59,084 bases of DNA from Asaia bogorensis (GTDB lineage: Bacteria > Pseudomonadota > Alphaproteobacteria > Acetobacterales > Acetobacteraceae): the NCBI GenBank assembly GCA_945897825.1, contig CAMDGX010000019.1:1-59084 (forward strand). Direction: 5' to 3'. Position 1 is the stretch's first letter, and each line of letters begins with the position of its first letter. Shown one piece after another: positions 826 to 41,235 of this stretch. A model generated the notes under the pieces. The model was not told the DNA's origin. It ran no database searches and worked only from the letters and a program-made list of their open reading frames with translations. A program made the translations under genes and the position numbers.

Positions 826-935
826 CTTCTTTTTCTGAAGAAAAAGAAGCAAAAAGACTTTTTCCCATTTGCGCCCGGGTTAACAGCCAGGCAAATGGGA
901 GAAAGTTTTTTGGTTCTTTTTTTCAAAAAAGAACC
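826..935. repeat. Compound palindromic repeat, copy 1 (A-core-C)
   Basis: Element A is an 11-bp inverted repeat around GA (CTTCTTTTTCT 826-836, AGAAAAAGAAG 839-849). Element C is an 11-bp inverted repeat around TC (GGTTCTTTTTT 912-922, AAAAAAGAACC 925-935). The core between them pairs over 15 bases with one G-T (858-872 with 891-905). Read on either strand, the core hairpin is followed by T-tracts, as in a bidirectional terminator. It lies between the glutathione S-transferase and MFS genes, which run in the same direction. Confidence 0.85.
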
Positions 936-961
936 GCTTTCTTTCTTGAGATTCTCCTGAC

Positions 962-2158
962 ATGCACCCGGAACTCCGCCGTTCCTGGCCGGTCGTTGCC
1001 GCGTGCTTCCTGGTCGCCATCCACGCCTGGACCTACGGCTTCTACGGCCTGTCCGCCTTTGTCGCTGCCTTCCAGCGGGAGCGCGGCTGGTCCAGCGCGA
1101 TGACCTCCGGCGCCACCTCGGCCTTTTATCTTGTCGGCGCCATCGCGCTCGCCCGCGCGCCGCTGTGGGTCCAGCGCTTCGGCCCGCGGACCGTGCTGCT
1201 CAGTGGGTGCATCTGCCTCTCCCTCGGTGCGACCATCGCGGCGAATGCCACCGCCGCCTGGCATCTCGTCCTCGGCTTCCTGGTCCTGGCGCTCGGCTGG
1301 GCCTGCACCAGCGTTCCGGCGCTTTCGACCGTCATTGCCCTGTGGTTCGACACGCGCCGGGGCCTCGCGATGTCGCTCGCGCTCAACGGCGCCAGCGCCG
1401 CCGGCTTCACGCTCGCGCCCGCGCTGGTCTGGCTGTCCGACCGGCACGGGATCGCCTTCGCTGGCACCGTCCTTGCCCTGGGGATGCTGGTGCCGCTGGT
1501 GCCGATCGTGTTGCTGGCCCTGGCCGGCCCGCGCCAGGCCTTCGCACCGGCGCCGGTGGCGGCACCGGGCACCGAACTGGCGACCCAGGGTGCTGCCATG
1601 CGCAGCCGCCGCTTCTGGGCCATTGCCCTGCCCTTCGCGCTGATCGTCATGGCCCAGGTCGGGCTCATGGTGCATTTGGTCTCGCTGCTGCTGCCGCGAC
1701 TGCATGCCGAAGGTGCTGCGCTGGCCCTCGGCATAGTCGCCGTTTGCGCCGTCATCGGCCGGGTGGCGCTCGGCACCATCATCGACCGGATCGACCAGCG
1801 CCGGGCCGCCGCCGCGGGGGCCGCGGTGCAGATGGCCGGGCTGGCCCTGATGTGGTCCCTGCCCGCCGAGCCCTGGGCGCTCTATGCCGGCTGCGTGCTG
1901 TTCGGCCTGTCCGTCGGCAACAACATCACGCTGCCGCCGCTGCAGCTCCAGCGCAGCTTCACCCGCGCCAGCTTCGCCCTCGTGGTCGGCCTCTACAGCG
2001 CCGTCGCCCAGCTGGGCTACGCCGTCACCCCCGGCCTCCTCGGGCTGATCCACGACGCCACGGGCGGCTACCAGGCCGTGCTGCTCGCGGTGATCGCGAT
2101 GCAGGCCACCGGCGCGCTGCTGCTGCTGGCCGGGCGGAGCCAGCAGCGCAGCACCTGA
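962..2158 (+). CDS. MFS transporter
   Basis: The 398-residue protein consists almost wholly of hydrophobic helices, about 12, with a central more polar linker around residues 195-215. This is the normal build of major facilitator superfamily carriers. It is probably a proton-driven carrier for a small organic anion at the inner membrane, closest in feel to monocarboxylate or oxalate/formate-type members. The substrate is not evident. The ATG at 962 follows repeat copy 1 by 26 bases, so the gene probably has its own promoter or reads through the repeat. Its stop is only 6 bases from the convergent permease gene. Confidence 0.85.
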   Translation: MHPELRRSWPVVAACFLVAIHAWTYGFYGLSAFVAAFQRERGWSSAMTSGATSAFYLVGAIALARAPLWVQRFGPRTVLLSGCICLSLGATIAANATAAWHLVLGFLVLALGWACTSVPALSTVIALWFDTRRGLAMSLALNGASAAGFTLAPALVWLSDRHGIAFAGTVLALGMLVPLVPIVLLALAGPRQAFAPAPVAAPGTELATQGAAMRSRRFWAIALPFALIVMAQVGLMVHLVSLLLPRLHAEGAALALGIVAVCAVIGRVALGTIIDRIDQRRAAAAGAAVQMAGLALMWSLPAEPWALYAGCVLFGLSVGNNITLPPLQLQRSFTRASFALVVGLYSAVAQLGYAVTPGLLGLIHDATGGYQAVLLAVIAMQATGALLLLAGRSQQRST

Positions 2159-2164
2159 CGCCGG

Positions 2165-3061
2165 CTACTTCGAGCGCGGATCCAGCGCGTCGCGCAGCCC
2201 GTCGCCGACCAGGTTGAAGCTCAGCACCACCAGGAAGATCGCCGCCCCCGGGAACACCGCCAGCCACGGCGCCTGGGTGAGGAAGCGCTGCGCCGAATTG
2301 AGCATCGACCCCCAGGACGGCGCCGGCGGCTGCTGGCCCAGCCCCAGGAACGACAGGCTCGCCTCCGCGATGATCGCCCCGGCGATCGCCAGCGTCGCCT
2401 GCACCATCACCGGTGGCACGATGTTCGGCAGCACATGGCGCACCGCCACCCGCCAGGGCGGATTGCCCAGGGCGCGAGCGGCCTCGACATAGTCGTTGGT
2501 GGCCGCATCGATCGTCGCCCCGCGCGCCACGCGCACGAAGATCGGTGTCGCGGTGATGCCGATGGCGATCATCGCGTTCTGCAGGCTCGGCCCGAGGAAG
2601 GCGGCCAGCGCGATCGCCAGGATCAGGAACGGAGCCGCCAGCATCGCATCGACCAGCCGCCCGATGATCATGTCGGTTTTGCCGCCGACGAAGCCTGCCA
2701 GCAGCCCGATCGGCACGCCCACGCCGGTGGCGATCGTCACCGAGATCACGCCGGCCAGCAGACTGGCGCGCGCGCCCCAGATGATCCGGCTGAGCACGTC
2801 GCGCCCGTTTTCGTCGGTGCCCATCCAGTGCGCCCAGGAGGGCGCCTTGCGGATCAGCGTCCAGCTGGTCTTGACCGGGTCGAACGGCGCGATCAGCGGC
2901 GCGAAGGAGGCCACAACCACGAAGAACACCACCACCACCAGCCCGATCACCGCGGCCGGGCGGGACAGGAACCGCCGCACCGCCAGCCGCGCCGGCGATT
3001 GCGAGGCCGCGGCCATCACCGCGCCCGCGGTGTTCGCGGCACTTGCCGATGTTGCACTCAT
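2165..3061 (-). CDS. Peptide/nickel-type ABC transporter permease (DppC/OppC family)
   Basis: This 298-residue inner-membrane permease has the DppC layout. A polar N-terminus precedes the first helix (about residues 35-55). Next comes the motif 'HWMGTDENGRDVLSRI', which is diagnostic of DppC/OppC proteins. The binding-protein-dependent transport core follows, with an EAA-like loop ('EAARALGNPPWR'). It pairs with the upstream DppB-type permease to form the channel. The start codon overlaps the stop of that gene by 4 bases (ATGA), so translation is probably coupled. It is the last gene of a four-gene minus-strand operon that contains no ATP-binding subunit. Confidence 0.93.
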   Translation of the reverse strand: MSATSASAANTAGAVMAAASQSPARLAVRRFLSRPAAVIGLVVVVFFVVVASFAPLIAPFDPVKTSWTLIRKAPSWAHWMGTDENGRDVLSRIIWGARASLLAGVISVTIATGVGVPIGLLAGFVGGKTDMIIGRLVDAMLAAPFLILAIALAAFLGPSLQNAMIAIGITATPIFVRVARGATIDAATNDYVEAARALGNPPWRVAVRHVLPNIVPPVMVQATLAIAGAIIAEASLSFLGLGQQPPAPSWGSMLNSAQRFLTQAPWLAVFPGAAIFLVVLSFNLVGDGLRDALDPRSK

Positions 3062-4002
3062 GCGCCGCGCAGCCTCGGGTTGATCATCACGTAAAGAATG
3101 TCGGCCAGCAGGTTCAGCAGCACGTAGACGGTCGCCGTCACCAGCACCACGCCCTGCACCACCGGGTAGTCGCGGTTGAACACGGAATCGACCACCATCT
3201 TGCCGAAGCCGGGGATGGAGAACACCTGCTCGGTCAGCACCGCGCCGGACAGCAGCGTGCCCAGCTCCAGCGCGCCCAGCGTCACCACCGGCACCAGCGC
3301 GTTGCGCAGCGCGTGCTTCGTGACGACCAGCGTCTCGCCCAGCCCCTTGGCGCGCGCGGTGCGCACATAGTCCTGCTGCAACGCCGTCAGCATCGCGCTG
3401 CGGGTGTGGCGCATGAACACGGCGGCGATGCCGGTGCCCAGCACGAAGGCCGGCATGATCGTGGTGGCCAGCGACTGCCGCCAATCCTCGGTCAGCGGCA
3501 CGTAGCCCGAAGGCGGCAGCCAGCCGAGATGCACCGACACCAGCAGGATCATCATGATCCCGAGCCAGAAGTTCGGCGTCGACAGCCCGGCCAGCCCGAT
3601 CGCGTTGGCCGCGTAGTCCCACACGGTGTTCTTCTTGACCGCCGAGATCACGCCGAGCGGCACGCCGATGACCACGGCGATGACGAAGGCCATGCCGGCC
3701 AGCTGCAACGTCACCGGCAATTTGGTCGCCACCAGCTCGGTCACCGGCTGGCGGATGCGCCAGGAGAAGCCGAGGTCCCCCTGCAGCACATTGGTGATCC
3801 AGTAGAGGTACTGCATCACCAGCGGCTGGTCGAGCTTCAGCTCGCGGCGGATCTGCTCCAGCACCAGCGGGTCGCGCTCCTCGCCGGCCAGCACCAGCGC
3901 GGGATCGCCAGGCATGAGCTGCTGGAGCCCGAACACCATGATGCTGACCAGCAGCAGCGTCGGGATCACCTGCGCGAAGCGTGCGCCGAGATGGCCTCTC
4001 AT
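3058..4002 (-). CDS. Peptide/nickel-type ABC transporter permease (DppB/OppB family)
   Basis: The 314-residue permease has the DppB signature: an N-terminal helix followed by 'LMPGDPALVLAG', then a periplasmic region, five further helices and a cytoplasmic EAA loop ('YVRTARAKGLGE'). This region contacts the ATPases in related systems. It sits between the binding-protein genes and the DppC-type gene and overlaps both by 4 bases. The substrate is probably a di- or oligopeptide, or a related polar solute bound by the two upstream-encoded SBP5 proteins. Confidence 0.93.
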   Translation of the reverse strand: MRGHLGARFAQVIPTLLLVSIMVFGLQQLMPGDPALVLAGEERDPLVLEQIRRELKLDQPLVMQYLYWITNVLQGDLGFSWRIRQPVTELVATKLPVTLQLAGMAFVIAVVIGVPLGVISAVKKNTVWDYAANAIGLAGLSTPNFWLGIMMILLVSVHLGWLPPSGYVPLTEDWRQSLATTIMPAFVLGTGIAAVFMRHTRSAMLTALQQDYVRTARAKGLGETLVVTKHALRNALVPVVTLGALELGTLLSGAVLTEQVFSIPGFGKMVVDSVFNRDYPVVQGVVLVTATVYVLLNLLADILYVMINPRLRGA

Positions 4003-5573
4003 CGGGCGAACTTCACGCCGTTGAGGCGCAGCATCCCGTCGGCCACCGGGTCGAAGCCCTCCACCTTGGCCGCCATGCCGAAGTTCCAGCGGGCATTGTA
4101 GAGGTACATGATCGGCAGATCGTCACGCAGCAGCGCATAGACCTTGCGATACGTCGCCATCCGCACCGCCATGTCCGCGGTGCTGCGCCCCTGGTCCAGC
4201 AGCGTGTCGAACGCGGGGTTCTTGTAGCCGACATAGTTCGTGCCGGCGCCGGTGTAGAGCAGGTCGCGCAGATTGCCGTCGACGTCGGGCCGCCCCGTCC
4301 AGCCCACCGTCCAGGCCGCGAAGTCGCCCTTGTCGGCGGCATTCAGGGTGGAGACGAACTCCATCGTGCTCAGCTTCAGCTCGAACCCGGCCTCGGCGAC
4401 CATCGACTGCATCACCTCGGCCACCTGCACCGCCTCGGGATTGTTGATGACCGTCAGCGTCACGACGAAGGGCAGCTTCACCCCCGCCTCCGCCAGCAGC
4501 GCCCGCGCCCGCGCCACGTCGCGCTTCGGCTGCGGCAGGGCGGGATCGAAGAACGGGCTGGTCGGCGGCACCGGATAGGCGTTCGGCGCATGCACGCCGT
4601 TGAACACCACGTCCACGATCGCCTTGCGGTCGATGGCGAGGTCGAAGGCCTGGCGCACGCGCTTGTCGGTGCCGAACGGCCCCGGCGTGGTGTTGTTGCG
4701 CCCCATGTTCACCGTGAGCCCGGCATAGCCGAGCCCGTCGAAGGTGTGCAGTTTCAGTCGGTTGTCCTTGCGCACCTCATCGGCCAGGGTCGGCGGCACG
4801 TTCATGTTCACGTCGATCGCGCCGGCCCGCAGGTTGGCCAGCCGGACCGTGCTGTCGGAGATCGGCCGGAAGGTCACGCGCGAGAAATGGTAGTTCGCCG
4901 CGTCCCAATAGCCCGGCACGCGCTCGATCACGATCCGGTCCTGCGCCACGCGTTCGAGGAAGCGGTACGGCCCGGCGCACACGGGACGCAGCCCGAAATC
5001 CTTGCCCGCCGCCTCGGCCGCTGTGGGCGAAACCAGCACCCCGGCGCGCACGGCAAGCTGGCTGAGGAACACGACATCGGGCCCCTTCAGGCGGAAGCGC
5101 ACCGTCAGCGGATCGACGATTTCCACGCCGGTGAGGCTGGCGAGGTCGCCACGCCGCGCGCTGCCGGTGTAGGTCTGGTGCCGCTCGATGCTGTATTTCA
5201 CCGCGGCGGCATCGACCGGCGTGCCGTCGTTGAACGACACGCCCGGGCGCAGCTTCACCACCAGCGTCTGCGCGTCGGGCCACTCGTAGGACAGGGCGAG
5301 GCGGGGCACGACCTCCATCCTGGCGTTGTAGTCGAACAGGCTCTCGCACATGTTCAGCAGCGCAACCCGCTGCACATAGGCGCGCCCGGTGGTGGGATCC
5401 ATCACGTCGGCGTCTTCGGAGATGGCGACGCGCAGGTGCGGCAGATCCTGCGCCGTCGCCGCGGGAGCCCCGGCTGCGAGAGCGGCGAAGGCCAGGGCGG
5501 TGACGGCAATCGGGGCGCGGACGGTCATGGCGGCGGCCTTCATGGAAGAATGAAGCGAGGGGGCGGCGGTCAT
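3999..5573 (-). CDS. ABC transporter substrate-binding protein (SBP family 5)
   Basis: The 524-residue secreted binding protein has a Sec-type signal peptide ending near 'APAATA' (about residue 40). The mature SBP5 domain contains 'LRPGVSFNDGTPVDA', 'VCAGPYRFLERV' and 'AIDRKAIVDVVF'. The chosen ATG (5571-5573) overlaps the stop of the preceding binding-protein gene by 4 bases; internal ATGs at 5543 and 5528 are alternatives nearer the signal core. It is a clear paralogue of the neighbouring SBP: both share PVCAGP, DYWDAAN/GYWDAAN and the 'EVMQSM' segment. Two binding proteins feeding one permease pair would widen the substrate range. This is inference. Confidence 0.92.
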   Translation of the reverse strand: MTAAPSLHSSMKAAAMTVRAPIAVTALAFAALAAGAPAATAQDLPHLRVAISEDADVMDPTTGRAYVQRVALLNMCESLFDYNARMEVVPRLALSYEWPDAQTLVVKLRPGVSFNDGTPVDAAAVKYSIERHQTYTGSARRGDLASLTGVEIVDPLTVRFRLKGPDVVFLSQLAVRAGVLVSPTAAEAAGKDFGLRPVCAGPYRFLERVAQDRIVIERVPGYWDAANYHFSRVTFRPISDSTVRLANLRAGAIDVNMNVPPTLADEVRKDNRLKLHTFDGLGYAGLTVNMGRNNTTPGPFGTDKRVRQAFDLAIDRKAIVDVVFNGVHAPNAYPVPPTSPFFDPALPQPKRDVARARALLAEAGVKLPFVVTLTVINNPEAVQVAEVMQSMVAEAGFELKLSTMEFVSTLNAADKGDFAAWTVGWTGRPDVDGNLRDLLYTGAGTNYVGYKNPAFDTLLDQGRSTADMAVRMATYRKVYALLRDDLPIMYLYNARWNFGMAAKVEGFDPVADGMLRLNGVKFAR

Positions 5574-7111
5574 GGTGCGATCTTCATGCCCTGCACGCGG
5601 ATCAACCCGTCCGGCACCGGCACGAAGCCGGAGACCTTGGCGTTCATGCCCATGATCGGCTTGCCGGAGAACAGGTAGAGCAGCGGGATGTCCTGGTGCA
5701 CCTGGGCGGCGATCTTGCCGTAGATCGCGCGGCGGGCGGCAATGTCGGTGGTGGCGCGGGCGTCCTGCAGCCAGGTGTCGACGCTGGCGTTGCTGTAGCC
5801 GGACGAGTTCAGCGGGCCCTTGGTGCGGATCATGTTCCACATGTTGGCGTCCGCGTCCGCCCGGCCGGACCAGCCGATGAAGAACACCTCGAAATCGCCG
5901 GCATCGGAGGCGCGCAGGGCGGTGACGAATTCGGTCGAGCGCAGCTTGACGTCGAACCCGGCCTCGGCGGCCATCGACTGCATCACCTCGCCGGCCTGGC
6001 GCGCGTCGGGGCTGTTGGAGATCATCAGCTCGACGGCGATCGGCGTCTTCACCCCAGCTTCCGCCAGCAATGCCTTCGCCTTGGCGACGTCGCGCGCCGG
6101 CACCGCCACCTGGGGCGCGTAGAACGGCGAGCTCGGCGGCACCGCCTGGGCGACCGGCGTGTAGAGGCCGCCATAGACCACGTCGACCAGCGCCTTGCGG
6201 TCCAGCGACAGCTCGAACGCCTTGCGCACCCGCGCATCCTGCATCATCGGGGTGCGCGGGCGGGTGCCGTTGACGTGGTTGAAGGTGAGGCTGGTGTAGC
6301 CGAGGCCGTCCATGACCACGAGGCGCAGGCGGTTGTCGCTTTTGACCTCGTCGGCGTTGTGCGGCAGCAGGCCCATGATCATGTCCAGCGCGCCGGCGCG
6401 CAAATTGGCCACGCGCACCGAGCCGTCAGTGACCGGCAGGTAGACCAGGCGGTTGAGATGGATGTTCGCCGCGTCCCAGTAGTCGGGGAAGCGGTCGAGG
6501 ACGATGCGGTCCTGGGGCACGCGCTCGGTGAAGCGGAACGGGCCGGCGCAGACCGGGGCCTTGCCGAAATCGTTGCCCAGGGCGGCGATGGCCTTGGCCG
6601 ACATGATCATGCCGGCGCGGTCGGTCAGCTGGGCGAGGAAGGAGGCGTTCGGAGCGCTCAGCACCAGGCGGACGGTGTGGCGATCGACCTCCACGATGTC
6701 CTTGAGGCCAGCCAGCTCGCCGCGGCGGGTGCTGCCCTGCATGTTCAGGTGCCGCTCCAACGAGGCCTTCACCGCCGCCGAGTCGAGCTCCGTGCCGTCG
6801 TGGAACTTCACGCCCTGGCGCAGCTTCAGCTCCAGCGTCAGCGGGTCGGTCCAGGTGTAGGCGGTGGCAAGCTGCGGCACGATCGCCAGCTTGGGGTCGA
6901 TGTCCACCAGCTTGTCGCACAGGCCGTTGAACACGATCCGGCCGACCAGGGTGCGCGACAGCGTGGGGTCCAGCGCATCGGCATCGTTGTCGAGGCCGAT
7001 GCGCAGCGTGCCCGGCGGGTTGGTTTGCGCGGTGGCGGGCACGGCGGCGCCCAGCGCCATCGCCGCGAGAGTGGCCAGAACCAGGGGGGTGGTCATGCGG
7101 CGGCGGGCCAT
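5570..7111 (-). CDS. ABC transporter substrate-binding protein (SBP family 5), first gene of importer operon
   Basis: This 513-residue secreted binding protein starts at an ATG preceded by AGGAAAGGA, a good ribosome site. It has a short Arg-rich N-terminus and a signal peptide ending at 'VPATAQ' (about residue 30). The SBP5 core includes 'LRQGVKFHDGTELDS' and 'PVCAGPFRF'. It is the promoter-proximal gene of the importer operon, reading away from the divergent Crp/Fnr regulator gene 158 bases off. The two could share control, but I could not identify an FNR-type box in the gap. The ligand is not predictable from sequence; peptides, glutathione and opines are all possible for this family. Confidence 0.92.
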   Translation of the reverse strand: MARRRMTTPLVLATLAAMALGAAVPATAQTNPPGTLRIGLDNDADALDPTLSRTLVGRIVFNGLCDKLVDIDPKLAIVPQLATAYTWTDPLTLELKLRQGVKFHDGTELDSAAVKASLERHLNMQGSTRRGELAGLKDIVEVDRHTVRLVLSAPNASFLAQLTDRAGMIMSAKAIAALGNDFGKAPVCAGPFRFTERVPQDRIVLDRFPDYWDAANIHLNRLVYLPVTDGSVRVANLRAGALDMIMGLLPHNADEVKSDNRLRLVVMDGLGYTSLTFNHVNGTRPRTPMMQDARVRKAFELSLDRKALVDVVYGGLYTPVAQAVPPSSPFYAPQVAVPARDVAKAKALLAEAGVKTPIAVELMISNSPDARQAGEVMQSMAAEAGFDVKLRSTEFVTALRASDAGDFEVFFIGWSGRADADANMWNMIRTKGPLNSSGYSNASVDTWLQDARATTDIAARRAIYGKIAAQVHQDIPLLYLFSGKPIMGMNAKVSGFVPVPDGLIRVQGMKIAP

Positions 7112-7269
7112 CGCTCGTCCTTTCCTGTTCGGGAATCGCCGCAGACGCGCCGGATTCGTCTCCGTCGCGCGTCTGCCCCCCGTATTGTTGTGCTTGTATG
7201 ACCATCGTGCCGATCCAGGCCCGGCGTTGCAAGGGTCGTCGCCGCGAGTCGCCCCACGGAGCCTGCCCC

Positions 7270-7962
7270 ATGCACGAGCGCCTGTTCGACCTGTTCCCGG
7301 CCCTGGCGGCGCTGGCACCGCCCGAGCGCGCGGAGCTTGCCGCCCAGGTTCGGCCGATGCGCCTGGCGGCGGGGGCGGCGCTGTTCCATCCCGGCGAACT
7401 CTGCGCCGGCTATCCGTTCGTGCTCGACGGGCGCGTGGTGGTGCGGCGGATCGCGCGGTCGGGGCGGGAGATCGTGCTGTACCGGGTGCTGCCGGGCCAG
7501 ACCTGCATCATGAGCACCACCTGCCTGATGAACGACACGACCGCCTCGGCGGAAGCGGTGGCCGAGGCGGATGTGGCGGCGCTGGCGCTGCCCGGCCCGG
7601 CGTTCGCGCGGCTCCTGGCGCAGTCCGCCGCGTTCCGCAGCTTCGCCTTCGGGGCCTGCGCACGACGGATCGGCGACCTGATGGCGCGCATCGAAGAAAT
7701 GGCCGACACCTCGATCGACCAGCGCCTGGCCGCCCGGCTGCTGGCATTGGCCGGGACGGGAGGTGCGGTGGCGGTGACGCATGCCGAGCTGGCGCGCGAC
7801 ATCGGCAGCGCGCGCGAGGTGGTCAGCCGGGCGATCAAGCACCTCGCGGGGCGCGGCTGGCTGCGGGGCGAGCGGGGGCGGATCGAGCTACTCGCGCCGT
7901 CGATGCTGCGCGCGCTGGCCGATGGTGACGAAGTCACCGACGCGGCCTCCGGCGGCGGGTGA
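7270..7962 (+). CDS. Crp/Fnr family transcriptional regulator
   Basis: The 230-residue regulator has an N-terminal cyclic-nucleotide-binding-like beta roll (about 10-120), the long dimer helix (about 120-150) and a C-terminal winged helix. The recognition helix lies near 'AREVVSRAIKHL' (181-192). The usual FNR iron-sulfur pattern is not present, although cysteines occur at 45, 79, 85 and 130. The effector is therefore unclear, possibly redox or a small molecule. The frame is open from 7198, but the ATG at 7270 gives a normal N-terminus. A DUF2892 membrane protein follows after 32 bases. Regulators of this subgroup next to a DUF2892 gene are a familiar pairing linked to reactive sulfur or redox stress. 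Confidence 0.88.
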   Translation: MHERLFDLFPALAALAPPERAELAAQVRPMRLAAGAALFHPGELCAGYPFVLDGRVVVRRIARSGREIVLYRVLPGQTCIMSTTCLMNDTTASAEAVAEADVAALALPGPAFARLLAQSAAFRSFAFGACARRIGDLMARIEEMADTSIDQRLAARLLALAGTGGAVAVTHAELARDIGSAREVVSRAIKHLAGRGWLRGERGRIELLAPSMLRALADGDEVTDAASGGG

Positions 7963-7994
7963 AATGGCGGCACGGCGCAAGGAGGCCGGATGCC

Positions 7995-8186
7995 ATGGTT
8001 GCCAATGTCGGTGGAATCGATCGGGTGCTGCGCGCGGTCGTCGGGATCGTGCTGATCGCCCTTGTCTTCGTGGGGCCGCAGACGCCGTGGGGTTGGATCG
8101 GGCTGGTGCCGCTGGCGACGGCCCTGATCCGGTTCTGCCCGTTCTATCCCCTGCTGGGCCTGAACACCTGCCCGCGGCAGGGCTGA
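7995..8186 (+). CDS. DUF2892 / YgaP-type small inner-membrane protein
   Basis: This 63-residue protein has two membrane helices (about 12-30 and 34-46) and ends 'CPFYPLLGLNTCPRQG'. That spacing of cysteines around 'FCPFYPLLGLNTC' is typical of DUF2892 domains, the membrane part of YgaP-like rhodaneses. AAGGAGG (7979-7985) sets the ATG at 7995. It lies 32 bases after the Crp/Fnr gene and is probably co-transcribed with it. The molecular role of stand-alone DUF2892 proteins is not settled. Here the conserved cysteines and the presence of a rhodanese (19.4 kb) and SQR (34.7 kb) make a sulfur-related role plausible. Confidence 0.85.
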   Translation: MVANVGGIDRVLRAVVGIVLIALVFVGPQTPWGWIGLVPLATALIRFCPFYPLLGLNTCPRQG

Positions 8187-8235
8187 TGCAGCGCGGGAGT
8201 GGGCGGCGGCGACGGGACGGCGTAGGCTGCCCCGC

Positions 8236-10350
8236 ATGACGCCGTCCGTTCCCGTTGCCACCGACATCGTATTGCTGGGCGCGGGGCACGCGCATGTCGA
8301 GGTGCTGCGCCGCGCGGCGATGCGGCCGGACCCGGGCGTGCGGCTGACACTGATCGCGCGCGAGGGGAACACCCCGTATTCCGGCATGCTGCCGGGGTTG
8401 ATCCGCGGCGAGCACGGCTTCGACGATGCGCATCTCGATTGCGCGAAGCTGGCCATCGCCGCGGGCGCCCGGCTGATCCTGGGCGAGGCGACGGCGATCG
8501 ACCTGGCACGGCGGGAAGTGGCGGTCGCGGGACGGCCGCCGGTGGCGTACGACCTGCTGGCGGTCGATGTCGGCGGGGTGCCGGCGATGCCGGCGGGGGG
8601 TGGAACCCCGGTGAAACCGATCGGGCGGTTCCTGGCGCGGCTGGCCGACATCGAGCGCGACCTCGCGCCGGGTACACGGATCGTGGTGGTGGGCAATGGC
8701 GCGGCCGGCTGCGAGCTGGCGATCGCGCTGGCCCTGCGGCTGGCCGGGCGGGCGCGGGTCGTGCTGGTCGGGCGAGGCCCGGTGCCGATGAGCGATGCGC
8801 CCGCGCGGGTGCAGCGCGAGGCCCGGGCGGGGCTGGTGCGGGCGGGGGTGGAGATCGTCAGCGGCGTGGATGCCGGCGCGCACGATGGTGCGCTCCTGCC
8901 GCTCTCCGATGGGAGCGTGCTGGAGGCCGGGCATGTGCTGTGGGCAACCGGGGTGGTGGCGCCGGCCTTCCTGGCCGCCTCCGGCCTGGAATGCGACGCG
9001 GCCGGATGCATCCGGGTGGACGCCACACTGCGCAGCGTGAGCAACCAGCGGGTGTTTGCCGCCGGGGATTGCGCGGCGCTGGAGGGGGCGCCGCGGCCCA
9101 AGGCCGGGGTGTGGGCGGTGCGGGCCGGGGCGAAGCTGGCGGAAAATCTCGCGCGGGCGGCAAGCGGGGCGCCGTTGCTGCCGTGGCGGCCGCAGCGCAG
9201 TGCGCTGGCGATCCTGGGCCTGGGGCACGGGCGGGCCGTGGCGTGGAAAGACCGGTTCTCCTTTGCGGGCGCCGCGGCGCACTGGTTGAAGCAGCGGATC
9301 GATCGGCGCTGGATGGCGATGTACCAGTCGCTGCGGCCAATGGCCGGCACCGGAGACGCCATGCGCTGCGGCGGGTGCGGAGCCAAGATCGGGCCGGAGG
9401 CGCTGGCCGACGCGCTGGCCGGCCTGGCCGAACCGCCGCGGGAAGATATCATGGTCGGCATGGCGGAGGGGGACGACGCCGCCGTCGCGCTGCCGCCGCC
9501 CGGCATGGCGGTGGTGCAGAGCGTCGATCATTTCCGCGCCTTCATCGACGACCCCTTCATCTTCGGCAAGATCGCCGCGGCGCATGCGCTGTCGGACATT
9601 CACGCCATGGGCGCACGGCCGTGGACGGCGCTGGCCATTGCCGCGTTGCCGTTCATGCAGGGGCGGCGCATGGGGCAGGATCTCAGGGCGATGATGCTCG
9701 GCGCCGTCGAGGTGCTGCGCGCGGATGGCTGCGCGCTGGTGGGCGGGCACAGCGCGGAGGGGGCGGAGGCGTCGCTGGGCTTCGCGGTGACGGGGCTCGC
9801 GGCGCTGGATGCGCTGTGGCGCAAGGCGGGGTTGAAGATCGACGACGTGCTGGTGCTGACCAAGCCGCTCGGCACCGGAATCGTGCTGGCCGGGCATATG
9901 CGCGGGCTGGCGCGGGTCGATTGGCTGGAGGCGGCGCTCGCCGGCATGGCGCACAGCGACGGCGCGGCGGCCGAGGTTCTGCGCAGGTTCAACGTGCGGG
10001 CCTGCACCGATGTGACCGGGTTCGGGCTGGGCGGGCACCTGATGGAGATGCTGCGCGCATCGGGCGTGGCCGCGGTGCTGGATGCGGATTTACCGGCACT
10101 GCCAGGGGCGCGGGAGCTGGCGGCCCTGGGGGTGGAGAGCACGCTGGCGCCCGCGAACCGGGCGATGCTCGACATCGCCGACTCCGCGATGATGGCACTG
10201 CTGGCCGATCCGCAGACCTCGGGCGGGCTGCTGGCGGGGCTGCCGCGCGAGCAGGCCGATGCCTGCGTCGCGGCACTGCGCGCAGTTGGCGTCGAGGCGT
10301 GGGCGATCGGCACGGTGGCCGCAGGGGCCGCCGGCATCCGGGTGAGTTGA
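8236..10350 (+). CDS. selD: Bifunctional NADH dehydrogenase-like (FAD) / selenide, water dikinase SelD
   Basis: The 704-residue fusion has two parts. Residues 1 to about 370 form a pyridine-nucleotide-disulfide-type FAD oxidoreductase like NDH-2, with 'LLGAGHAHVEVL' at the start and a second GxGxxG ('VVGNGAAGCEL') near 155. Residues 376-704 are SelD, which makes selenophosphate from selenide and ATP. The catalytic Cys/Lys pair is present in 'CGGCGAK' (C381, K384, matching C17/K20 of E. coli SelD), and the ATP-binding aspartates lie in 'EGDDAAVAL'. NDH-SelD fusions are known from several bacterial groups. The oxidoreductase half may reduce or deliver selenium; that is unproven. No selA, selB, mnmH or Sec tRNA is in the window. 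Confidence 0.93.
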   Translation: MTPSVPVATDIVLLGAGHAHVEVLRRAAMRPDPGVRLTLIAREGNTPYSGMLPGLIRGEHGFDDAHLDCAKLAIAAGARLILGEATAIDLARREVAVAGRPPVAYDLLAVDVGGVPAMPAGGGTPVKPIGRFLARLADIERDLAPGTRIVVVGNGAAGCELAIALALRLAGRARVVLVGRGPVPMSDAPARVQREARAGLVRAGVEIVSGVDAGAHDGALLPLSDGSVLEAGHVLWATGVVAPAFLAASGLECDAAGCIRVDATLRSVSNQRVFAAGDCAALEGAPRPKAGVWAVRAGAKLAENLARAASGAPLLPWRPQRSALAILGLGHGRAVAWKDRFSFAGAAAHWLKQRIDRRWMAMYQSLRPMAGTGDAMRCGGCGAKIGPEALADALAGLAEPPREDIMVGMAEGDDAAVALPPPGMAVVQSVDHFRAFIDDPFIFGKIAAAHALSDIHAMGARPWTALAIAALPFMQGRRMGQDLRAMMLGAVEVLRADGCALVGGHSAEGAEASLGFAVTGLAALDALWRKAGLKIDDVLVLTKPLGTGIVLAGHMRGLARVDWLEAALAGMAHSDGAAAEVLRRFNVRACTDVTGFGLGGHLMEMLRASGVAAVLDADLPALPGARELAALGVESTLAPANRAMLDIADSAMMALLADPQTSGGLLAGLPREQADACVAALRAVGVEAWAIGTVAAGAAGIRVS

Positions 10351-10402
10351 TCCGCCCTCCCGGCCGCGCCACTGTGCGGGCGAATCAGGCAAGGAACGCC
10401 GC

Positions 10403-11485: not shown

Positions 11486-11486
11486 C

Positions 11487-13049
11487 ATGGCGATGGCGCC
11501 CCAGCCGCCGGAAGGGCCGCGCCCGACGCTCGCGGAGATCGCCGCCGGCGCGCCGGTGACGGTCTCGCGCCGACGCCCGGGGTCGGCGCGCCGCTGGCCG
11601 CGCAAGCCGCGGTCGCGCCTGGTGCGCTGGCTGACGACGCTTGCGGTGCTGGGGATGGTGGCCGGGCTGGCAGGGCTGGCCGGGGCCGCGTGGTTCCTCG
11701 ACGACCAGAACCGGACACCGCGGGAATGGGCGCCGTATGTCGAGCGCCGGGCGGCCGGCAACCACCCGCTGTTCGTTCAGGCCGGCGACCTCGTGGCGCG
11801 CACCCTGCTGCGGCTGGATCGGCTGGCGCGCGAGGACGAGCCGGTGGTGCCGCCGGGCGTCGGCGCCGATGCCACCCGGTCCGGCGCCCCGCCGCAGGTG
11901 ATGACGAAGCTGGTGACCAACACCGCGCAGTTGGTCGCAGCCCTGGCCGCGGCGACGCCGGGGCAGATCATCCAGATGGTGCCCGGCGACTACGCCGTCA
12001 CCGGGCGCGGCCTGATCCTCGACCGCCCTGGCGCGCCGAACGCCCCGATCACGCTGCGCGCCGAGCGCCTGGGCGATGTGACGATCACCTCGCACGTGCC
12101 GGCCGCGTTCAAAGCCTATGCGCCGCACTGGGTGGTGGAGAATCTGGTGGTGCGCGGGGGCTGCGACGCGGGCGGGCACAGCTATTGCGAACATGCGCTG
12201 CACGTGGTCGGCGGTGCCGTGGGCACGGTGATCCGCAACAACCGGTTCGAGGACCTCAACGCGCACATCAAGATCAACGGCGAAGACGGACAGTTCCCCG
12301 ACAATGGGCGCATCCTGGGCAACACCATGGTCAACGCGGTGGCGCGCAACACGCGCAACCCGGTCACGCCGATCGACCTGGTGTCGGCCAGCAACTGGCG
12401 CATCGCCGGCAACTTCATCGCCGATTTCCAGCGCCAGGGCACGGGCGGGGCCACCTACGGCGCCTTCATGAAGGGGGCGGGCGAAGGCACCGTGATGGAG
12501 CGCAACGTGGTGCTGTGCGAGTGGCGGCTGCGGCGGCGCAGCTACTCGCCCAATATCGGCCTGTCGATCGGCGGCGGCGGCACCTGGCCGGACGCCATCA
12601 AGCGCGACCTCGGCAAGTCCGGGCTGGAGCAGACCGGAGGGGTGATCCGCGACAACCTGATTGCGTTCTGCAACGATGTCGGCATCTACGTGAACAAGGG
12701 GCTGCGCTCGCTGATCGCGCACAACACGATCGTCGATACGGCGGGGATCGGGGTGCGGTTCGGTGAATCCTCGGCCGAAGTCGTCGGCAACATCGTGGAC
12801 GGAGTGGTGCAGACGCGCGACGGCGGCGTGGCACGCCTGCGTGACAACCACACGGCGGCGCTGCTGGGCCTGTTCGTGGGCTGGCACCCGGCGCGCGACC
12901 TGTTCCGCGATCCCGCACGACTGGACCTGCGCTGGCGCAGCCGGCCCGAACCGATCACCAGCGGGGAGTTGCGGCCAGACCTGTGCGGGACGGAACGGAC
13001 CGGGCGGGTGATGCCGGGGGCGTTCGAGGATTTCGGGCGGTGCAGATAG
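11487..13049 (+). CDS. Membrane-anchored right-handed parallel beta-helix protein
   Basis: The 520-residue protein begins with a basic N-terminus, followed by one membrane helix (about residues 52-70) that should anchor the rest in the periplasm. Residues of roughly 135-480 read as right-handed beta-helix coils, with repeated short 'VIRNNRF', 'RILGNTMV', 'NWRIAGNFI' and 'GVIRDNLIAF' units. This fold is seen in pectate-lyase-like and nitrous-oxide-accessory-type proteins. A polysaccharide-binding or -cleaving role is possible, but no catalytic set could be assigned. The ATG lies one base after the previous stop, so it may be co-translated with the tartrate dehydrogenase gene. Repeat copy 2 starts 10 bases after its stop. 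Confidence 0.72.
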   Translation: MAMAPQPPEGPRPTLAEIAAGAPVTVSRRRPGSARRWPRKPRSRLVRWLTTLAVLGMVAGLAGLAGAAWFLDDQNRTPREWAPYVERRAAGNHPLFVQAGDLVARTLLRLDRLAREDEPVVPPGVGADATRSGAPPQVMTKLVTNTAQLVAALAAATPGQIIQMVPGDYAVTGRGLILDRPGAPNAPITLRAERLGDVTITSHVPAAFKAYAPHWVVENLVVRGGCDAGGHSYCEHALHVVGGAVGTVIRNNRFEDLNAHIKINGEDGQFPDNGRILGNTMVNAVARNTRNPVTPIDLVSASNWRIAGNFIADFQRQGTGGATYGAFMKGAGEGTVMERNVVLCEWRLRRRSYSPNIGLSIGGGGTWPDAIKRDLGKSGLEQTGGVIRDNLIAFCNDVGIYVNKGLRSLIAHNTIVDTAGIGVRFGESSAEVVGNIVDGVVQTRDGGVARLRDNHTAALLGLFVGWHPARDLFRDPARLDLRWRSRPEPITSGELRPDLCGTERTGRVMPGAFEDFGRCR

Positions 13050-13059
13050 GAAGGAAGGC

Positions 13060-13168
13060 CTTCTTTTTCTGAAGAAAAAGAAGCAAAAAGACTTCATCCA
13101 TTTTGTGCCGCGCTTGAACGGTTTGAATGTGATGAAAGTTTTTTGGTTCTTTTTTTCAAAAAAGAACC
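13060..13168. repeat. Compound palindromic repeat, copy 2
   Basis: Element A (13060-13070 / 13073-13083) and element C (13145-13155 / 13158-13168) are base-for-base the same as in copy 1. The core differs and pairs only partly: CATC at 13095-13098 with GATG at 13131-13134, plus imperfect extensions. The module fits between two convergent stops, 10 bases from each gene, as expected for a bidirectional terminator. Confidence 0.85.
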
Positions 13169-13178
13169 GCTTCCTTGT

Positions 13179-15731: not shown

Positions 15732-15747
15732 CGGACGGACCTCCGGG

Positions 15748-17408: not shown

Positions 17409-17563
17409 GACACTCTCCCTGGGGCGTAATTTCCTGCGGGGTGATGCGGGACCGGGCATGTCGAATTCCAGACACCACAACAGCTCAACCCTGCCGCGCA
17501 TTGCGTGCACGCGCAAGCGCTGTCGTGCAGTGCGCGCGCGCCGGCACATGCTAGAAGCCGCGC

Positions 17564-19387: not shown

Positions 19388-19391
19388 AGCG

Positions 19392-19763: not shown

Positions 19764-19824
19764 GGCGTTTCCTCCTTGTGGCGTTCGGGCGAATATGGGG
19801 CGGGCAGGCCGCGCGGAAAAGCCG

Positions 19825-23893: not shown

Positions 23894-23906
23894 AGCAAGC
23901 AAGAAT

Positions 23907-24023
23907 CTTCTTTTTCTGAAGAAAAAGAAGCAAAAAGACTTTCATCCATTGGCACCGGGAGGACCATCAACTCCCGGTGCCATGTGGAGAAAGTTTTTTG
24001 GTTCTTTTTTTCAAAAAAGAACC
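23907..24023. repeat. Compound palindromic repeat, copy 3
   Basis: Element A is at 23907-23917 / 23920-23930 and element C at 24000-24010 / 24013-24023, both unchanged from the other copies. The core is a perfect GC-rich hairpin, TGGCACCGGGAG (23950-23961) with CTCCCGGTGCCA (23971-23982) and a 9-base loop. T6 and T7 runs follow on the top strand and T5 runs on the bottom strand. It fills the gap between the convergent msrA and CoA-transferase stops (13 and 6 bases away). Confidence 0.9.
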
Positions 24024-24029
24024 TCTTCC

Positions 24030-25250
24030 CTACCCGAGCTTGACCGCCCCCGATCCCGCCAGCGCCGCGATCGCCGCCTCGCTCCGCCCCAGCATCCGCA
24101 GCACCTCGCCCGTATGCTCCCCCAGACGCGGCGCGGGCGAGCGGATGGCCCCGGGCGTGGCGCCAAGCCGCGGCACCACGGCGTGCATCGCCACATGGCC
24201 CAGATCGGCATCCGGCATCTCCACCAGGATTTCCCGCTCGGCCACGTGCGGGTCGGCGATCAGCTGGTCGATGTCGTACACCGGCGCCGCGGTGATCTCC
24301 GCCTTCTCGAAGATCGCCAGCACCTCGGCGCAGTCGCGCGCGGCGATGAACTCGGCGATCGGCCGCTCGCAGTCCGCGGCGTTCTCCACCCGCGCCGTGT
24401 TCGTCGCGAAGCGCGGATCGGCGATCATGTCCGCCCGCCCGATGGTGCGCAGCAGCCGTTCGGCCATCGCCTGGATCGAAGCCGAGATCGCGATGAACCG
24501 CCCGTCGCGGGTGTGGAACACGTTGCGCGGCGAGGTGGTGTTGCTGCGGCTGCCGGTGCGCGGCGGGATCTCGCCGGAAACCTGGAACATCGCCGCCTGC
24601 GGTCCCAGGATCGAGACCATCGGGTCGAGCAGCGGCAAATCGATCACCTGCCCCGGCCGTCCGGCCTCCACCTCGCGCCGCGCGATCATCACCGCGAAGG
24701 CGCCGTAGAGCCCGGCGACCATGTCGGCCAGCGCCAGCGGCGGCAGCACCGGCTCGCGGTCGCCGAATCCATTCATCGCCGCGAACCCGCTCATGCCCTC
24801 CACCAGCGTCCCAAACCCCGGCCGCTCGCGATACGGCCCGTCCTGCCCGAACCCCGACACCCGCACGATGATCAGCTTCGGATTGCGCGCATGCAGCACC
24901 GCGGGCGCCAGCCCCATCGCCTCCAGCGTGCCCGGCCGGAAATTCTCGATCAGCACGTCCGACGCCGCGATCAGGTCGCCCAGCACCGCCAGCGCATCCG
25001 GGTGACGCAGGTCGAGCGCCAGCGACTTCTTGTTCCGCGCATACACCTTCCAATGGAGCGAATGCCCATCGGTCCGCCAGGCCCGCAGCGGATCGCCCTT
25101 CGCGGGATCCTCGATCTTGATCACCTCCGCGCCATGGTCGGCAAGCTGCAGGCTGACCATGTTGCCCGCGACAAGGCGGGACAAATCCACCACCCGCAGC
25201 CCCGCCAGCGGCGGCGTGGCATCCGGCTGGAAATCACGTCGATGCAGCAT
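24030..25250 (-). CDS. CaiB/BaiF family CoA-transferase
   Basis: The 406-residue class III CoA-transferase has the family opening 'LAGLRVVDLSRLVAG', then 'GAEVIKIE', 'NFRPGTLE' and the active-site aspartate in 'LALADMVAGLYGA' (position equivalent to D169 of formyl-CoA transferase). It would move CoA between carboxylic acids through an aspartyl-CoA anhydride. The start overlaps the stop of the upstream acyl-CoA ligase gene by one base (TGATG), so the two form an operon for activating an organic acid. The substrate is unknown. Confidence 0.9.
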   Translation of the reverse strand: MLHRRDFQPDATPPLAGLRVVDLSRLVAGNMVSLQLADHGAEVIKIEDPAKGDPLRAWRTDGHSLHWKVYARNKKSLALDLRHPDALAVLGDLIAASDVLIENFRPGTLEAMGLAPAVLHARNPKLIIVRVSGFGQDGPYRERPGFGTLVEGMSGFAAMNGFGDREPVLPPLALADMVAGLYGAFAVMIARREVEAGRPGQVIDLPLLDPMVSILGPQAAMFQVSGEIPPRTGSRSNTTSPRNVFHTRDGRFIAISASIQAMAERLLRTIGRADMIADPRFATNTARVENAADCERPIAEFIAARDCAEVLAIFEKAEITAAPVYDIDQLIADPHVAEREILVEMPDADLGHVAMHAVVPRLGATPGAIRSPAPRLGEHTGEVLRMLGRSEAAIAALAGSGAVKLG

Positions 25251-36405: not shown

Positions 36406-36412
36406 TCCCCGC

Positions 36413-38026: not shown

Positions 38027-38108
38027 GCGCCGCTTCCCCATGATCGTGCGAAGGCTATGCGCAGTGCCCCGCGGCGGGCAACATCGCGCGGCGAAGCGGA
38101 GGATCGGC

Positions 38109-39598: not shown

Positions 39599-40353
39599 CC
39601 CTGCAAGGACGCCGCGCGCTGGTCACCGGCGCCGGCAGCGACGGCATCGGCCGCGCCATCTCCCGCGCCCTGGCCCGGGCCGGCGCCGACGTCGCCGTGC
39701 ACCATCTCGGCCAGGCCCGCGAGGCCGCCGCGCTCGTCGCGGAAATCCAATCCCTGGGTCGCCGATCCCTGGCCCTGGAAGCCGATTTCGCCGACGTCGC
39801 CGCCGCCCGCGCCATGGTGCGCCAAGCCATCGGTGCCCTCGGCGGCATCGACATCCTCGCCTGCACCGCTGCCGTGCTGCTGCGCAAGCCGGCGCTGGAA
39901 ACCGACGACGCCGACTGGGCGCGCGTCCATACCGTCAACCTCCACGCCAGCTTCGCCGTCGCCCAGGAGGCCGCGCGCGACATGCTCCCCCGCGCCTGGG
40001 GGCGCATCGTCATGGTCTCCTCCGTCAATCAATGGACGCCAAACCCCGGCCTGGTCGCCTACGCCGCCGGCAAGGCCGGCATGATGCAGATGGCCCGCAC
40101 CCTCGCCCTCGAACTCGCCCCCACCGGCATCACCGTCAACCTGATCGCCCCCGGCACCATCGAGACCGACTTCAACCGCGCCGCCCTCGCCGACCCCGCC
40201 TGGCGCGAAGCCAAGCTCGACCTGATACCGATGCGCCGCATCGGCCGCCCGGAGGATATCGCCGCCGCCGCCCTGTTCCTCGCCGGCGACGGCGCCGCCT
40301 ACGTCACCGGCAGCACCATCACCGTCGATGGCGGGCTCGAACTGCGGCCATGA
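39595..40353 (+). CDS. SDR family oxidoreductase (FabG-like)
   Basis: The 252-residue short-chain dehydrogenase has 'VTGAGSDGIGRAI' for cofactor binding, 'ACTAAVLL' in place of the NNAG stretch, catalytic YxxxK in 'VAYAAGKAG', 'PGTIETDF' and 'TVDGG'. The unusual NNAG replacement and 'SSVNQWTPNPG' active-site text suggest a specialised substrate rather than fatty-acid synthesis. It sits between the amidase and the E2-like gene with ATGA overlaps on both sides, so it belongs to the same pathway. Confidence 0.88.
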   Translation: MTLQGRRALVTGAGSDGIGRAISRALARAGADVAVHHLGQAREAAALVAEIQSLGRRSLALEADFADVAAARAMVRQAIGALGGIDILACTAAVLLRKPALETDDADWARVHTVNLHASFAVAQEAARDMLPRAWGRIVMVSSVNQWTPNPGLVAYAAGKAGMMQMARTLALELAPTGITVNLIAPGTIETDFNRAALADPAWREAKLDLIPMRRIGRPEDIAAAALFLAGDGAAYVTGSTITVDGGLELRP

Positions 40354-41129
40354 AAGGCAGAATGGTCCCGCTGTCGCGCCCGCGACGCATCCTGACCGAC
40401 CTGTCCCACGCCTCGCTCGCCTACCCGCGCGCCACGCTGAAAACCCGCATCGACGTCGGCGCCCTGGTCGCCCCCCGCGCCGCGCCGCCCCAAGGCGCCC
40501 GCGTGCCGTGGCCCATCGTCTTCGCCAAGGCCTTCGCCCTGGTGGCGCGCGACATGCCCCACCTGCGCCGCGTCTACGTGAAGCTCCCCTGGCCGCATTT
40601 CTACGAACTGCCCACCAGCGTTGCCTCCATCATCGTCGAACGCGACTGGCCCGAAGCCGCCCCGGTCGAACAGGCGCTGTTCCTCGCCCGCCTCAAGGAC
40701 CCCGCGGCCGCCGCCCTCGCCGACTCCGCCACCGCGCTGCGCCACGCCAAGACCGCGCCGATCGACAGCATCGCCGATTTCCGCCGCATCCTGGCCATCG
40801 CCGCCCTGCCGCTGCCGCTGCGCCGCCTGGCCCTCTACCTGGCGCTGAACCTCGGCCGCCAGGTGCCCAACTACTTCGGCACCTTCGCCATCTCCCCCCT
40901 CGGCTCGCACGGCGCGGCGATCCTGGACACCATCCCGGTCTGGACCAGCTTCCTCAACTACGGCCCCATCGCCCCCGATGGCGGCGTGGATGTCTATCTC
41001 TCCGTCGACCACCGCGTCATGGACGGAGGTCACGCCGCGCGGGCAATCACCGCGATGGAGGCGGTTCTCAACGGGGCGATACTCAACGAACTGAAGGCAA
41101 TCGAAGACAAGAAAGCGGTTCTTTTTTGA
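40350..41129 (+). CDS. 2-oxoacid dehydrogenase E2-like acyltransferase domain protein, no lipoyl domain
   Basis: The 259-residue protein consists only of the catalytic acyltransferase fold of E2 enzymes. The clearest mark is 'YLSVDHRVMDGGHAA' near 225-239, the HxxxDG motif in DHRVMDG form. 'FGTFAISPLG' is a family beta strand. No lipoyl or subunit-binding domain precedes it. It may acylate a small molecule or be structural. The final residues and the stop codon come from repeat copy 4 (the stop is 41127-41129, at the centre of a palindrome), so the original 3' end has been replaced. It is last in the amidase operon. Confidence 0.78.
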   Translation: MKGRMVPLSRPRRILTDLSHASLAYPRATLKTRIDVGALVAPRAAPPQGARVPWPIVFAKAFALVARDMPHLRRVYVKLPWPHFYELPTSVASIIVERDWPEAAPVEQALFLARLKDPAAAALADSATALRHAKTAPIDSIADFRRILAIAALPLPLRRLALYLALNLGRQVPNYFGTFAISPLGSHGAAILDTIPVWTSFLNYGPIAPDGGVDVYLSVDHRVMDGGHAARAITAMEAVLNGAILNELKAIEDKKAVLF

Positions 41130-41235
41130 AAAAAAGAACCAAAAAACTTTCCTGACCTTGCACCGTGGCCGATTGGCCGCCAGCGGCCAAAATGGATAGA
41201 AAGTCTTTTTGCTTCTTTTTCTTCAGAAAAAGAAG
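41117..41235. repeat. Compound palindromic repeat, copy 4 (reverse orientation)
   Basis: Element C (41117-41127 / 41130-41140) comes first and element A (41212-41222 / 41225-41235) last, so this copy is inverted relative to copies 1-3. The core differs again and holds a perfect palindrome, TTGGCCGC (41173-41180) and GCGGCCAA (41183-41190). The copy overlaps the end of the E2-like gene and stops 6 bases before the convergent GMC gene. Confidence 0.9.

What the first reader, a model, noticed from the sequence alone, without database searches (positions are those of the whole stretch)
826..41235. Dispersed 110-119 bp compound palindromes with swapped cores: a family of mobile bidirectional terminators?
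Four full copies (826-935, 13060-13168, 23907-24023, 41117-41235, the last inverted) share two identical 11-bp palindromes (A around GA, C around TC). The core between them differs in sequence. Three of the four cores are perfect or nearly perfect inverted repeats; copy 2 pairs only partly. On each strand the core hairpin is followed by T-rich tracts provided by A or C. Three copies fill the space between convergent stop codons with 6-13 bases to spare. A and C also pair with each other imperfectly, so one long hairpin or three short ones can form. Constant arms with exchanged but still paired cores suggest selection for structure, plus some spreading mechanism.
Basis: partly seen in the sequence, partly recalled or inferred. 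Interest (0 to 1): 0.8.

Follow-up and report, generated by a model that had tools for sequence, protein, structure and literature searches.

The report
Repeated three-hairpin two-way gene terminators
A roughly 140-base DNA element, repeated hundreds of times in this bacterium's genome, mostly sits right behind the ends of genes and looks like a ready-made transcription stop that works in both directions; related bacteria carry the same outer parts with other middles, so it has spread by a route that is still unknown.

Summary
The repeat is real. They belong to a family of about 340 copies in this genome (139 in the 2.0 Mb read). Each copy is two palindromic arms around a paired core, with outer purine/pyrimidine tracts. 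Copies sit behind genes: in 52 of 93 convergent, 66 of 337 co-directional and 5 of 189 divergent gaps of 100 bp or more, typically about 10 bp from a stop codon. Across 30 genomes the arms covary as separate hairpins (27 two-sided changes, 26 in the arms, against 4.6 shuffled), not as one arm-to-arm hairpin (1 against 0.9). Best reading: a bidirectional intrinsic terminator; no RNA ends were measured. 'Swapped cores' is half right: cores share a lineage consensus and diverge with compensation. Filled and empty orthologous sites, lineage-specific cores and arm 'dialects' indicate lineage-wise amplification, but no REP-type transposase was found here. The arm pattern was absent from 380 sampled genomes of other families of the class. 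It is a new family of a known kind; how it spreads and why arms stay so exact are open.

The parts
815..945 (+). Copy 1: full element with outer tracts, between co-directional genes ending 808 (glutathione S-transferase-like) and starting 962 (MFS transporter-like)
   Evidence: (131.8 bits)
826..849 (+). Left arm A of copy 1: long-type palindrome with TGAA loop
850..900 (+). Copy 1 spacer CAAAAAGACTTT and core hairpin
901..935 (+). Right side of copy 1: spacer with T-run and short-type palindrome C
13049..13178 (+). Copy 2: between convergent stops 13049 (beta-helix protein) and 13179 (transport permease); core pairs only partly; no element at this site in four genus relatives
   Evidence: (114.1 bits)
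23896..24033 (+). Copy 3: between convergent stops 23893 (methionine sulfoxide reductase) and 24030 (CoA-transferase III); near-perfect core
   Evidence: (136.5 bits)
41107..41246 (-). Copy 4, inverted: between convergent genes; the stop codon TGA (41127-41129) of the left gene lies inside the short arm
   Evidence: (113.9 bits)
58520..58634 (+). Copy 5: decayed, only the right arm (58594-58624) intact, in a divergent gap by my gene calls
   Evidence: (51.1 bits)
19388..19391 (.). Empty orthologous site: 4 bp between convergent stops (ABC ATPase / rhodanese); 6 genus relatives carry an element here

Best explanation
Each copy is a portable, two-way intrinsic transcription terminator made of three hairpins. 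Read from either strand, the polymerase meets an A-rich stretch, a paired core and then a T-run at the inner edge of the downstream arm; this should end the transcript. The downstream arm is itself a hairpin followed by a pyrimidine tract (CTTnCTTCCTT), which may be a second, back-up stop. Because the whole is symmetric, one copy serves both convergent genes. Shown by sequence: position, symmetry, pairing, compensatory change, filled and empty sites, different core families in different lineages. Inferred: that RNA ends there, the back-up role of the arm, amplification within lineages, and a copying mechanism, which is unknown.
For: Position: of 128 copies in the unselected contigs, 52 lie in convergent, 66 in co-directional and 5 in divergent gaps, 5 unclassified. 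Random placement gives 14.8 convergent (maximum 31 in 5000 trials) and 34.2 divergent (minimum 17). 94 of 104 convergent stop-to-arm distances and 59 of 66 co-directional upstream-stop distances are 0-20 bp, against 11 of 66 to the downstream start. One copy lies 11 bp behind a tRNA-Leu 3' end, of 29 tRNA genes in the part read. Structure: on one element from each of 30 genomes (25 genera) the two arm hairpins plus the stem base show 27 two-sided changes (26 in the arms) against 4.6 +/- 1.7 in shuffles, 0 of 500; arm-to-arm pairing shows 1 against 0.9. Own core halves pair better than swapped halves, 0 of 5000 permutations. Orthologous cores and stem base change on both sides: site 5, G171 GCTTGC/GCAAGC and G203 CCCCG/CGGGG; site 3, G202 ACGTTT/AAACGT. 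Arms without a near partner in viral contigs and one microvirus point downstream of the majority gene strand in 11 of 13 cases (for the microvirus by the record's annotation).
Against: No transcript 3' ends were available. 5 of 128 copies lie in divergent gaps. In the folds the T6 run is paired with the upstream A5, so the release point is uncertain. The simple terminator scan of window 1-20000 marks copies 1 and 2 only as arm hairpin plus pyrimidine tail on one strand, and its total (9) is not clearly above shuffles (6.6 +/- 2.8). Much of the core pairing comes from the shared consensus: swapped halves already pair well (mean -14.9 against -17.1 kcal/mol) and the own partner is the best of 47 in only 4; on alignment A1 the number of pairs with two-sided change is 15 against 12.4, reached by 44 of 500 shuffles. 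Two-armed copies also occur in one-directional viral contigs (e.g. L266, L267, L277), so one-armedness is not simply tied to one-way transcription; 3 of the 11 agreeing arms have a visible decayed partner, and the criterion is the contig's majority strand, not the neighbouring gene. Arms look more conserved than a terminator alone seems to need. Gene calls come from a home-made caller, not checked against an annotation.
Confidence: 0.8

Rival explanations
1. A selfish REP- or MITE-like palindromic repeat whose place behind genes only reflects what is tolerated; termination is incidental.
For: Patchy presence, filled and empty sites, arm dialects and different core families in the three genomes compared. 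In 8 of 278 arms the arm holds the stop codon of the neighbouring gene, as if it had arrived in a gene end.
Against: Arms and cores keep pairing through compensatory changes, which a purely selfish repeat need not do. In co-directional gaps copies sit next to the upstream stop. Neither PF01797 nor NF047646 gives a match at E <= 0.001 in G000 or in G119, the genome with most arms.
Confidence: 0.3
2. The arms are binding sites of a trans-acting protein (nucleoid, termination or uptake factor), and termination is only part of the function.
For: Arms nearly invariant within this genome (with an ascertainment caveat); dialects of the arm's closing pair: 19 of 32 carrier genomes have only one of two counted forms, e.g. 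G043 140/0, G062 67/0, G103 0/150, G150 0/105 for CTGAAG/GTGAAC; strong long-plus-short arm rule, 123 of 139 against 69 expected, p = 3e-22.
Against: 10 of the 32 genomes are mixed, including all 8 of this genus. No protein was sought beyond REP/Y1 transposases. A different founder copy in each lineage explains dialects too. About 340 copies are fewer than the generally >= 1000 given for uptake sequences (PMC1852404, passages read).
Confidence: 0.2
3. 3'-UTR stabiliser: hairpins that protect mRNA 3' ends from exonucleases after Rho-dependent or other termination.
For: Element lies about 10 bp behind stop codons; stable hairpins on both strands.
Against: The A-tract / stem / T-run layout on both strands fits termination better (inference from anatomy).
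Confidence: 0.1

Closest known systems
Uptake-sequence (DUS/USS) terminators of Neisseria and Pasteurellaceae (Kingsford 2007, PMC1852404, passages read)
   Same: A repeated genomic motif in inverted pairs, behind genes, serving as intrinsic terminator; lineage dialects of DUS are the subject of PMC3630211 (listing and start of abstract seen only).
   Different: There the conserved motif (about 9-11 nt) forms the stem itself, is generally present 1000 times or more, and mostly lies outside terminators. Here the conserved parts are 20-24 nt palindromic arms beside a variable stem, about 340 mostly paired copies; a link to DNA uptake was not tested.
Ordinary bidirectional intrinsic terminators (e.g. 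Bacillus cereus, PMC5381666, passages read)
   Same: One DNA segment serving two convergent genes as hairpin plus U-tract; compensatory evolution of stems.
   Different: To my knowledge (recalled) ordinary ones do not share their sequence with each other; here hundreds share the same two palindromic arms and, in this genome, a core consensus.
REP/BIME palindromes with RAYT transposases (recalled)
   Same: Hundreds of intergenic palindromic copies in one genome, patchy among relatives.
   Different: No RAYT match in this genome or in G119; none of 5 fetched transposase loci holds an arm; three palindromes with unequal arms; the flank profile shows no GTAG consensus (the GTAG rule is recalled).
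MITEs of bacteria (recalled)
   Same: Short, non-coding, inverted-repeat elements with filled and empty sites.
   Different: No target-site duplication could be recognised by eye; no parent transposon was found, and only REP/Y1-type enzymes were sought.

Membership tests
Intrinsic (Rho-independent) terminator | Stable hairpin followed by T-run at gene 3' end | tested here: met
   on both strands. The simple scan does not pick out the core-plus-T-run form
Intrinsic (Rho-independent) terminator | RNA 3' ends at the T-run, factor-independent release | not testable with these tools
   no RNA data
Bidirectional terminator | Symmetric layout, enriched between convergent genes | tested here: met
   52 of 93 convergent gaps of 100 bp or more (52 of all 254 convergent gaps) hold a copy; function itself not tested
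REP/RAYT system | RAYT transposase (NF047646 / Y1 PF01797) in the genome | tested here: not met
   no match at E <= 0.001 in G000 or G119. Over 200 genomes 16 of 47 arm carriers and 24 of 153 others have one, Fisher p 0.011, not corrected for relatedness
REP/RAYT system | Palindromes flanking the transposase gene | tested here: not met
   no arm in the 5 loci fetched, L112-L116; other transposase loci were not fetched
MITE | Filled and empty orthologous sites | tested here: met
MITE | Target-site duplication | tested here: inconclusive
   flanks 72-96 % identical; none recognisable by eye
MITE | Parent transposase sharing the ends | not tested
   only REP/Y1-type enzymes were searched
DUS/USS uptake sequence | Generally 1000 or more copies, most of them not in terminators | tested here: not met
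   about 340 elements per genome estimated; 23 arms without a strict partner beside 139 pairs, many such arms having a decayed partner (22 of 27)
DUS/USS uptake sequence | Promotes transformation | not testable with these tools
   needs an experiment
Any Rfam 15 family | Score above gathering threshold | tested here: not met
   0 in the window; best sub-threshold on copy 1 is 32.2 bits, 55.8 needed, E 0.00019

The most novel reading that the evidence does not exclude
A self-renewing terminator family: the arms are read by an unidentified trans-acting factor that drives copying of the element to gene ends and tends to hold the copies of a genome to one arm 'dialect', while the core is free to drift as long as it pairs. 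Genomes of this family of bacteria would then be supplied with gene ends by a domesticated mobile element. The mixed dialects of this genus would be a change of dialect in progress.
Probability: 0.18. Interest if true: 0.8.

Novelty: new variant of a known kind. Interest (0 to 1): 0.6.

Why it matters
Intrinsic terminators are usually thought to arise one by one. Here more than half of the convergent gaps of 100 bp or more in the part of the genome read (52 of 93) are filled by one interspersed family whose arms recur across many genera of the same bacterial family and whose middle differs between lineages. This makes it possible to test how a genome acquires terminators in bulk, what keeps arms so alike at hundreds of places, and whether a mobile repeat has become a standard gene end. 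The elements might also serve as compact two-way insulators in laboratory strains.

Tried and rejected
One long hairpin from arm A to arm C: it is the consensus lowest-energy fold and 95.1 % of its cells pair on A3, but shuffles give the same 95.1 % and there is no covariation, so it was rejected as the selected structure.

Unrelated, exchanged cores: rejected as a general rule, because cores share a consensus in this genome and other consensuses in G055 and G062; the different cores at orthologous site 3 remain.

Recent transposition of whole copies in this genome: no pair among 121 cores exceeds 84.3 % identity (18 of 139 cores outside 30-60 nt were not compared). Against this, two of the G055 cores (L365, L370) look alike by eye; not measured.

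RAYT/Y1 transposase as mover: no match in this genome; the weak family-wide association was not followed further. The cross-table was typed from the listings, taking the 200 genomes to be the same, since the handles agree where listed.

Single arms as a frequent class: 22 of the 27 arms that looked single have a partner with 0-2 errors, so the first element count (62) was too low. One search paired some of them but still too few; its numbers were replaced by those. Contigs C34 and C37 were left out of the context statistics because I had picked them from hit lists.

The first gene caller chose wrong frames and was replaced. The clustering missed arms with indels and was replaced.

Printed descriptions: none of the listed titles and abstract starts of searches (12 of 343 shown) and 77 concerns this repeat; searches (arm sequences as text) gave nothing. 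Most subscription papers are not in that library.
Full report
What is there. The window is contig C19 of an unnamed 4.93 Mb genome of 208 contigs. The palindromes are not chance: 0 matches in 100 shuffles. Genome-wide, the 35-base A pattern with up to 3 mismatches has 307 matches and the C pattern also 307, with 0 for the reversed controls. In 2,002,698 bases read (window included), 139 paired elements were found, which scales to about 342 for the genome.

Anatomy. From outside in: a purine tract (AAGGAAGnAAG-like) of about 12 bases (62 elements); an arm palindrome; an A-rich spacer CAAAAAxACTTT; the core; the mirror spacer AAAGTxTTTTTG; the second arm palindrome; a pyrimidine tract. Arms come in two lengths, about 22 nt (TTCTTTTTnTGAAn'AAAAAGAA) and about 20 nt (TTCTTTTTTGAAAAAAAGAA). 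One long plus one short arm is the rule: 123 of 139, 69 expected, p = 3e-22. The 14 elements with two long arms have a larger distance between arms (median 91 against 72 nt, p = 4e-5). I infer that unequal arms keep the element from being one long perfect palindrome, which replication tolerates badly (general knowledge, not tested).

Cores. In this genome they share a consensus and differ mostly towards the loop. Of 47 cores of at least 36 nt in 52 heterotypic copies, 36 have an energy z-score below -2 (mononucleotide shuffles). Own halves pair better than swapped halves, 0 of 5000 permutations, but the gain is moderate (mean -17.1 against -14.9 kcal/mol, own partner best in 4 of 47): much pairing comes from the consensus. 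On alignment A1 of 46 selected copies (heterotypic, core 36-54 nt), cells with two-sided changes are 66 against 40.2 +/- 6.2 shuffled (0 of 500), while the number of pairs with such a change is 15 against 12.4 (44 of 500).

Which structure is selected. Alignment A3 holds the best element of each of 30 genomes (25 genera; loci were given for 30 of the 36 genomes with a match) and was made without structure. The separate arm hairpins plus the stem base give 98.1 % paired cells and 27 two-sided changes (26 in the arms) against 4.6 +/- 1.7 (0 of 500 shuffles), and exceed every slid control. The arm-to-arm hairpin has 95.1 % paired cells, equal to its shuffles, and 1 two-sided change against 0.9. 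The elements were found with a model that includes the separate hairpins and was built from this genome, and shuffles do not allow for relatedness, so the numbers are not probabilities; the contrast between the two structures is the informative part.

Where it sits. A home-made gene caller gave a coding fraction of 0.911. In the unselected contigs 128 elements were placed: 52 convergent, 66 co-directional, 5 divergent, 5 unclassified. 52 of 93 convergent, 66 of 337 co-directional and 5 of 189 divergent gaps of 100 bp or more are occupied (there are 254, 1167 and 260 gaps of any length). Random placement gives 14.8 (maximum 31) convergent and 34.2 (minimum 17) divergent. The median stop-to-arm distance is 9 bp in convergent and 10.5 bp in co-directional gaps. 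In 8 of 278 arms the neighbouring gene's stop codon lies inside the arm, 7 of them as the TGA of the TGAA loop, window copy 4 included. One of 29 tRNA genes in the part read is followed by a copy, at 11 bp.

Relatives. In the family 47 of 200 genomes hold the long-arm pattern. The full-element model finds 36 of 120 genomes and 31 of 102 genera (at most 27 candidates were scored per genome, so these are presence data). In the class sample 2 of 385 genomes match, this one and another of the same family; the 380 from other families have none (long-arm pattern with up to 2 mismatches, so remoter forms could be missed). Two plasmids of Pseudoroseomonas cervicalis carry related stretches.

Gain and loss. 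Orthologous sites in genus relatives, flanks 72-96 % identical, show presence and absence. Site 2 (window copy 2) is filled only here among the five genomes with both flanks; the flanks are 12 and 18 bp apart in G171 and G119 and 68 bp apart, without an element, in G033 and G202. Site 5 (window 19387-19392) is empty here and in G200 but filled in six relatives, two of them (G202, G204) with a decayed arm. Site 3 is filled in own, G033, G202 and G203 and empty in G204 (in the relatives a further gene follows). Site 6 is filled in G119 and empty in five. Site 7 is filled in G033, and its flanks are 37 and 54 bp apart in G203 and G119. At site 3 the cores of own, G203 and G033 look unrelated but are paired; at site 5 the cores of the closer species differ by compensatory changes. 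No target-site duplication could be read.

Dialects and lineages. The arm with closing pair C-G and the arm with G-C were counted exactly in 32 carrier genomes (the T-A form was not counted). Examples: G043 140/0, G062 67/0, G056 63/0, G103 0/150, G150 0/105, G055 4/101, own 223/104, G119 78/389. 19 genomes have only one of the two forms in more than one copy, G111 has a single match, G055 and G031 are nearly pure, and 10 are mixed, including all 8 of this genus. Cores also differ: 20 arms each were sampled in two genomes; G055 (partner found for 17) has cores like TATTCGCTGGAGTC...GACTCCAGCGAATA, and in G062 (partner found for 9) three cores have GGGCAGTGCC...GGCACTGCCC. This suggests that whole elements were amplified in each lineage, after which cores diverged (mean 64 % and best 84 % identity among 121 cores here) while arms stayed at 96 % (130 arms of 22 nt) and 99 % (117 arms of 20 nt) identity. 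The arm values are inflated, because arms were found by likeness to a consensus (up to 3 errors) and only the two standard lengths were compared. Selection on arms and homogenisation between copies are not separated by these data.

Phages. A microvirus record (MG945182, source cattle blood) carries a core hairpin followed by the short arm only, on the strand of its annotated features. Of 13 exact arms without a near partner in IMG/VR contigs and this record, 11 point downstream of the contig's majority gene strand, 1 does not and 1 is undetermined; three of the 11 (L271, L289, L290) have a visible decayed partner. Two-armed copies also occur in one-directional contigs. This is mild support for the arm being the 3' part of a terminator.

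Mover. PF01797 has no match in this genome or in G119, and NF047646 none either. Family-wide the association is weak (16 of 47 against 24 of 153, p = 0.011).

Reading. The best-supported explanation is a portable bidirectional intrinsic terminator with a possible second stop at the downstream arm, amplified separately in lineages of one bacterial family by an unknown route. Shown: layout, position, covariation, turnover, dialects. Inferred: RNA termination itself, the amplification history and the reason for the exact arms. It is not filed as a REP/RAYT element or uptake sequence, since tested defining features were not met. No Rfam 15 family matches it at its threshold, and the paper searches named under Tried and rejected found no description.

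Noticed in passing
window 31483-31523 and 31571-31611: A different inverted repeat (41-nt arms, ACACAGAGGCACGGAGG motif) lies in the gap where relative G033 carries the element described here; the motif has 4 matches in the 2.0 Mb read, two of them in this pair.
   Followed up: partly
L093:17667-17854 (G033) and L108:1833-1982 (G204), ortholog of window copy 1: The core holds another repeat-like stretch containing GTCATTGCGAGCGCAGCG, and in G204 the left arm is lost.
   Followed up: no
L097:5528-5713 (G119): A long-core copy carries a further repeat-like stretch (GGATCCTTCGCC...AGGATGACGGG) inside the loop, as if repeats nest in cores.
   Followed up: no
L111:2850-3110 (MG945182): A microvirus from cattle blood carries a one-armed copy, which suggests a host from the same bacterial family (inference).
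   Followed up: partly
window 4316-4615 and 5887-6186: 300-nt direct repeat, 72 % identical, inside two neighbouring genes on the minus strand; probably a gene duplication.
   Followed up: no
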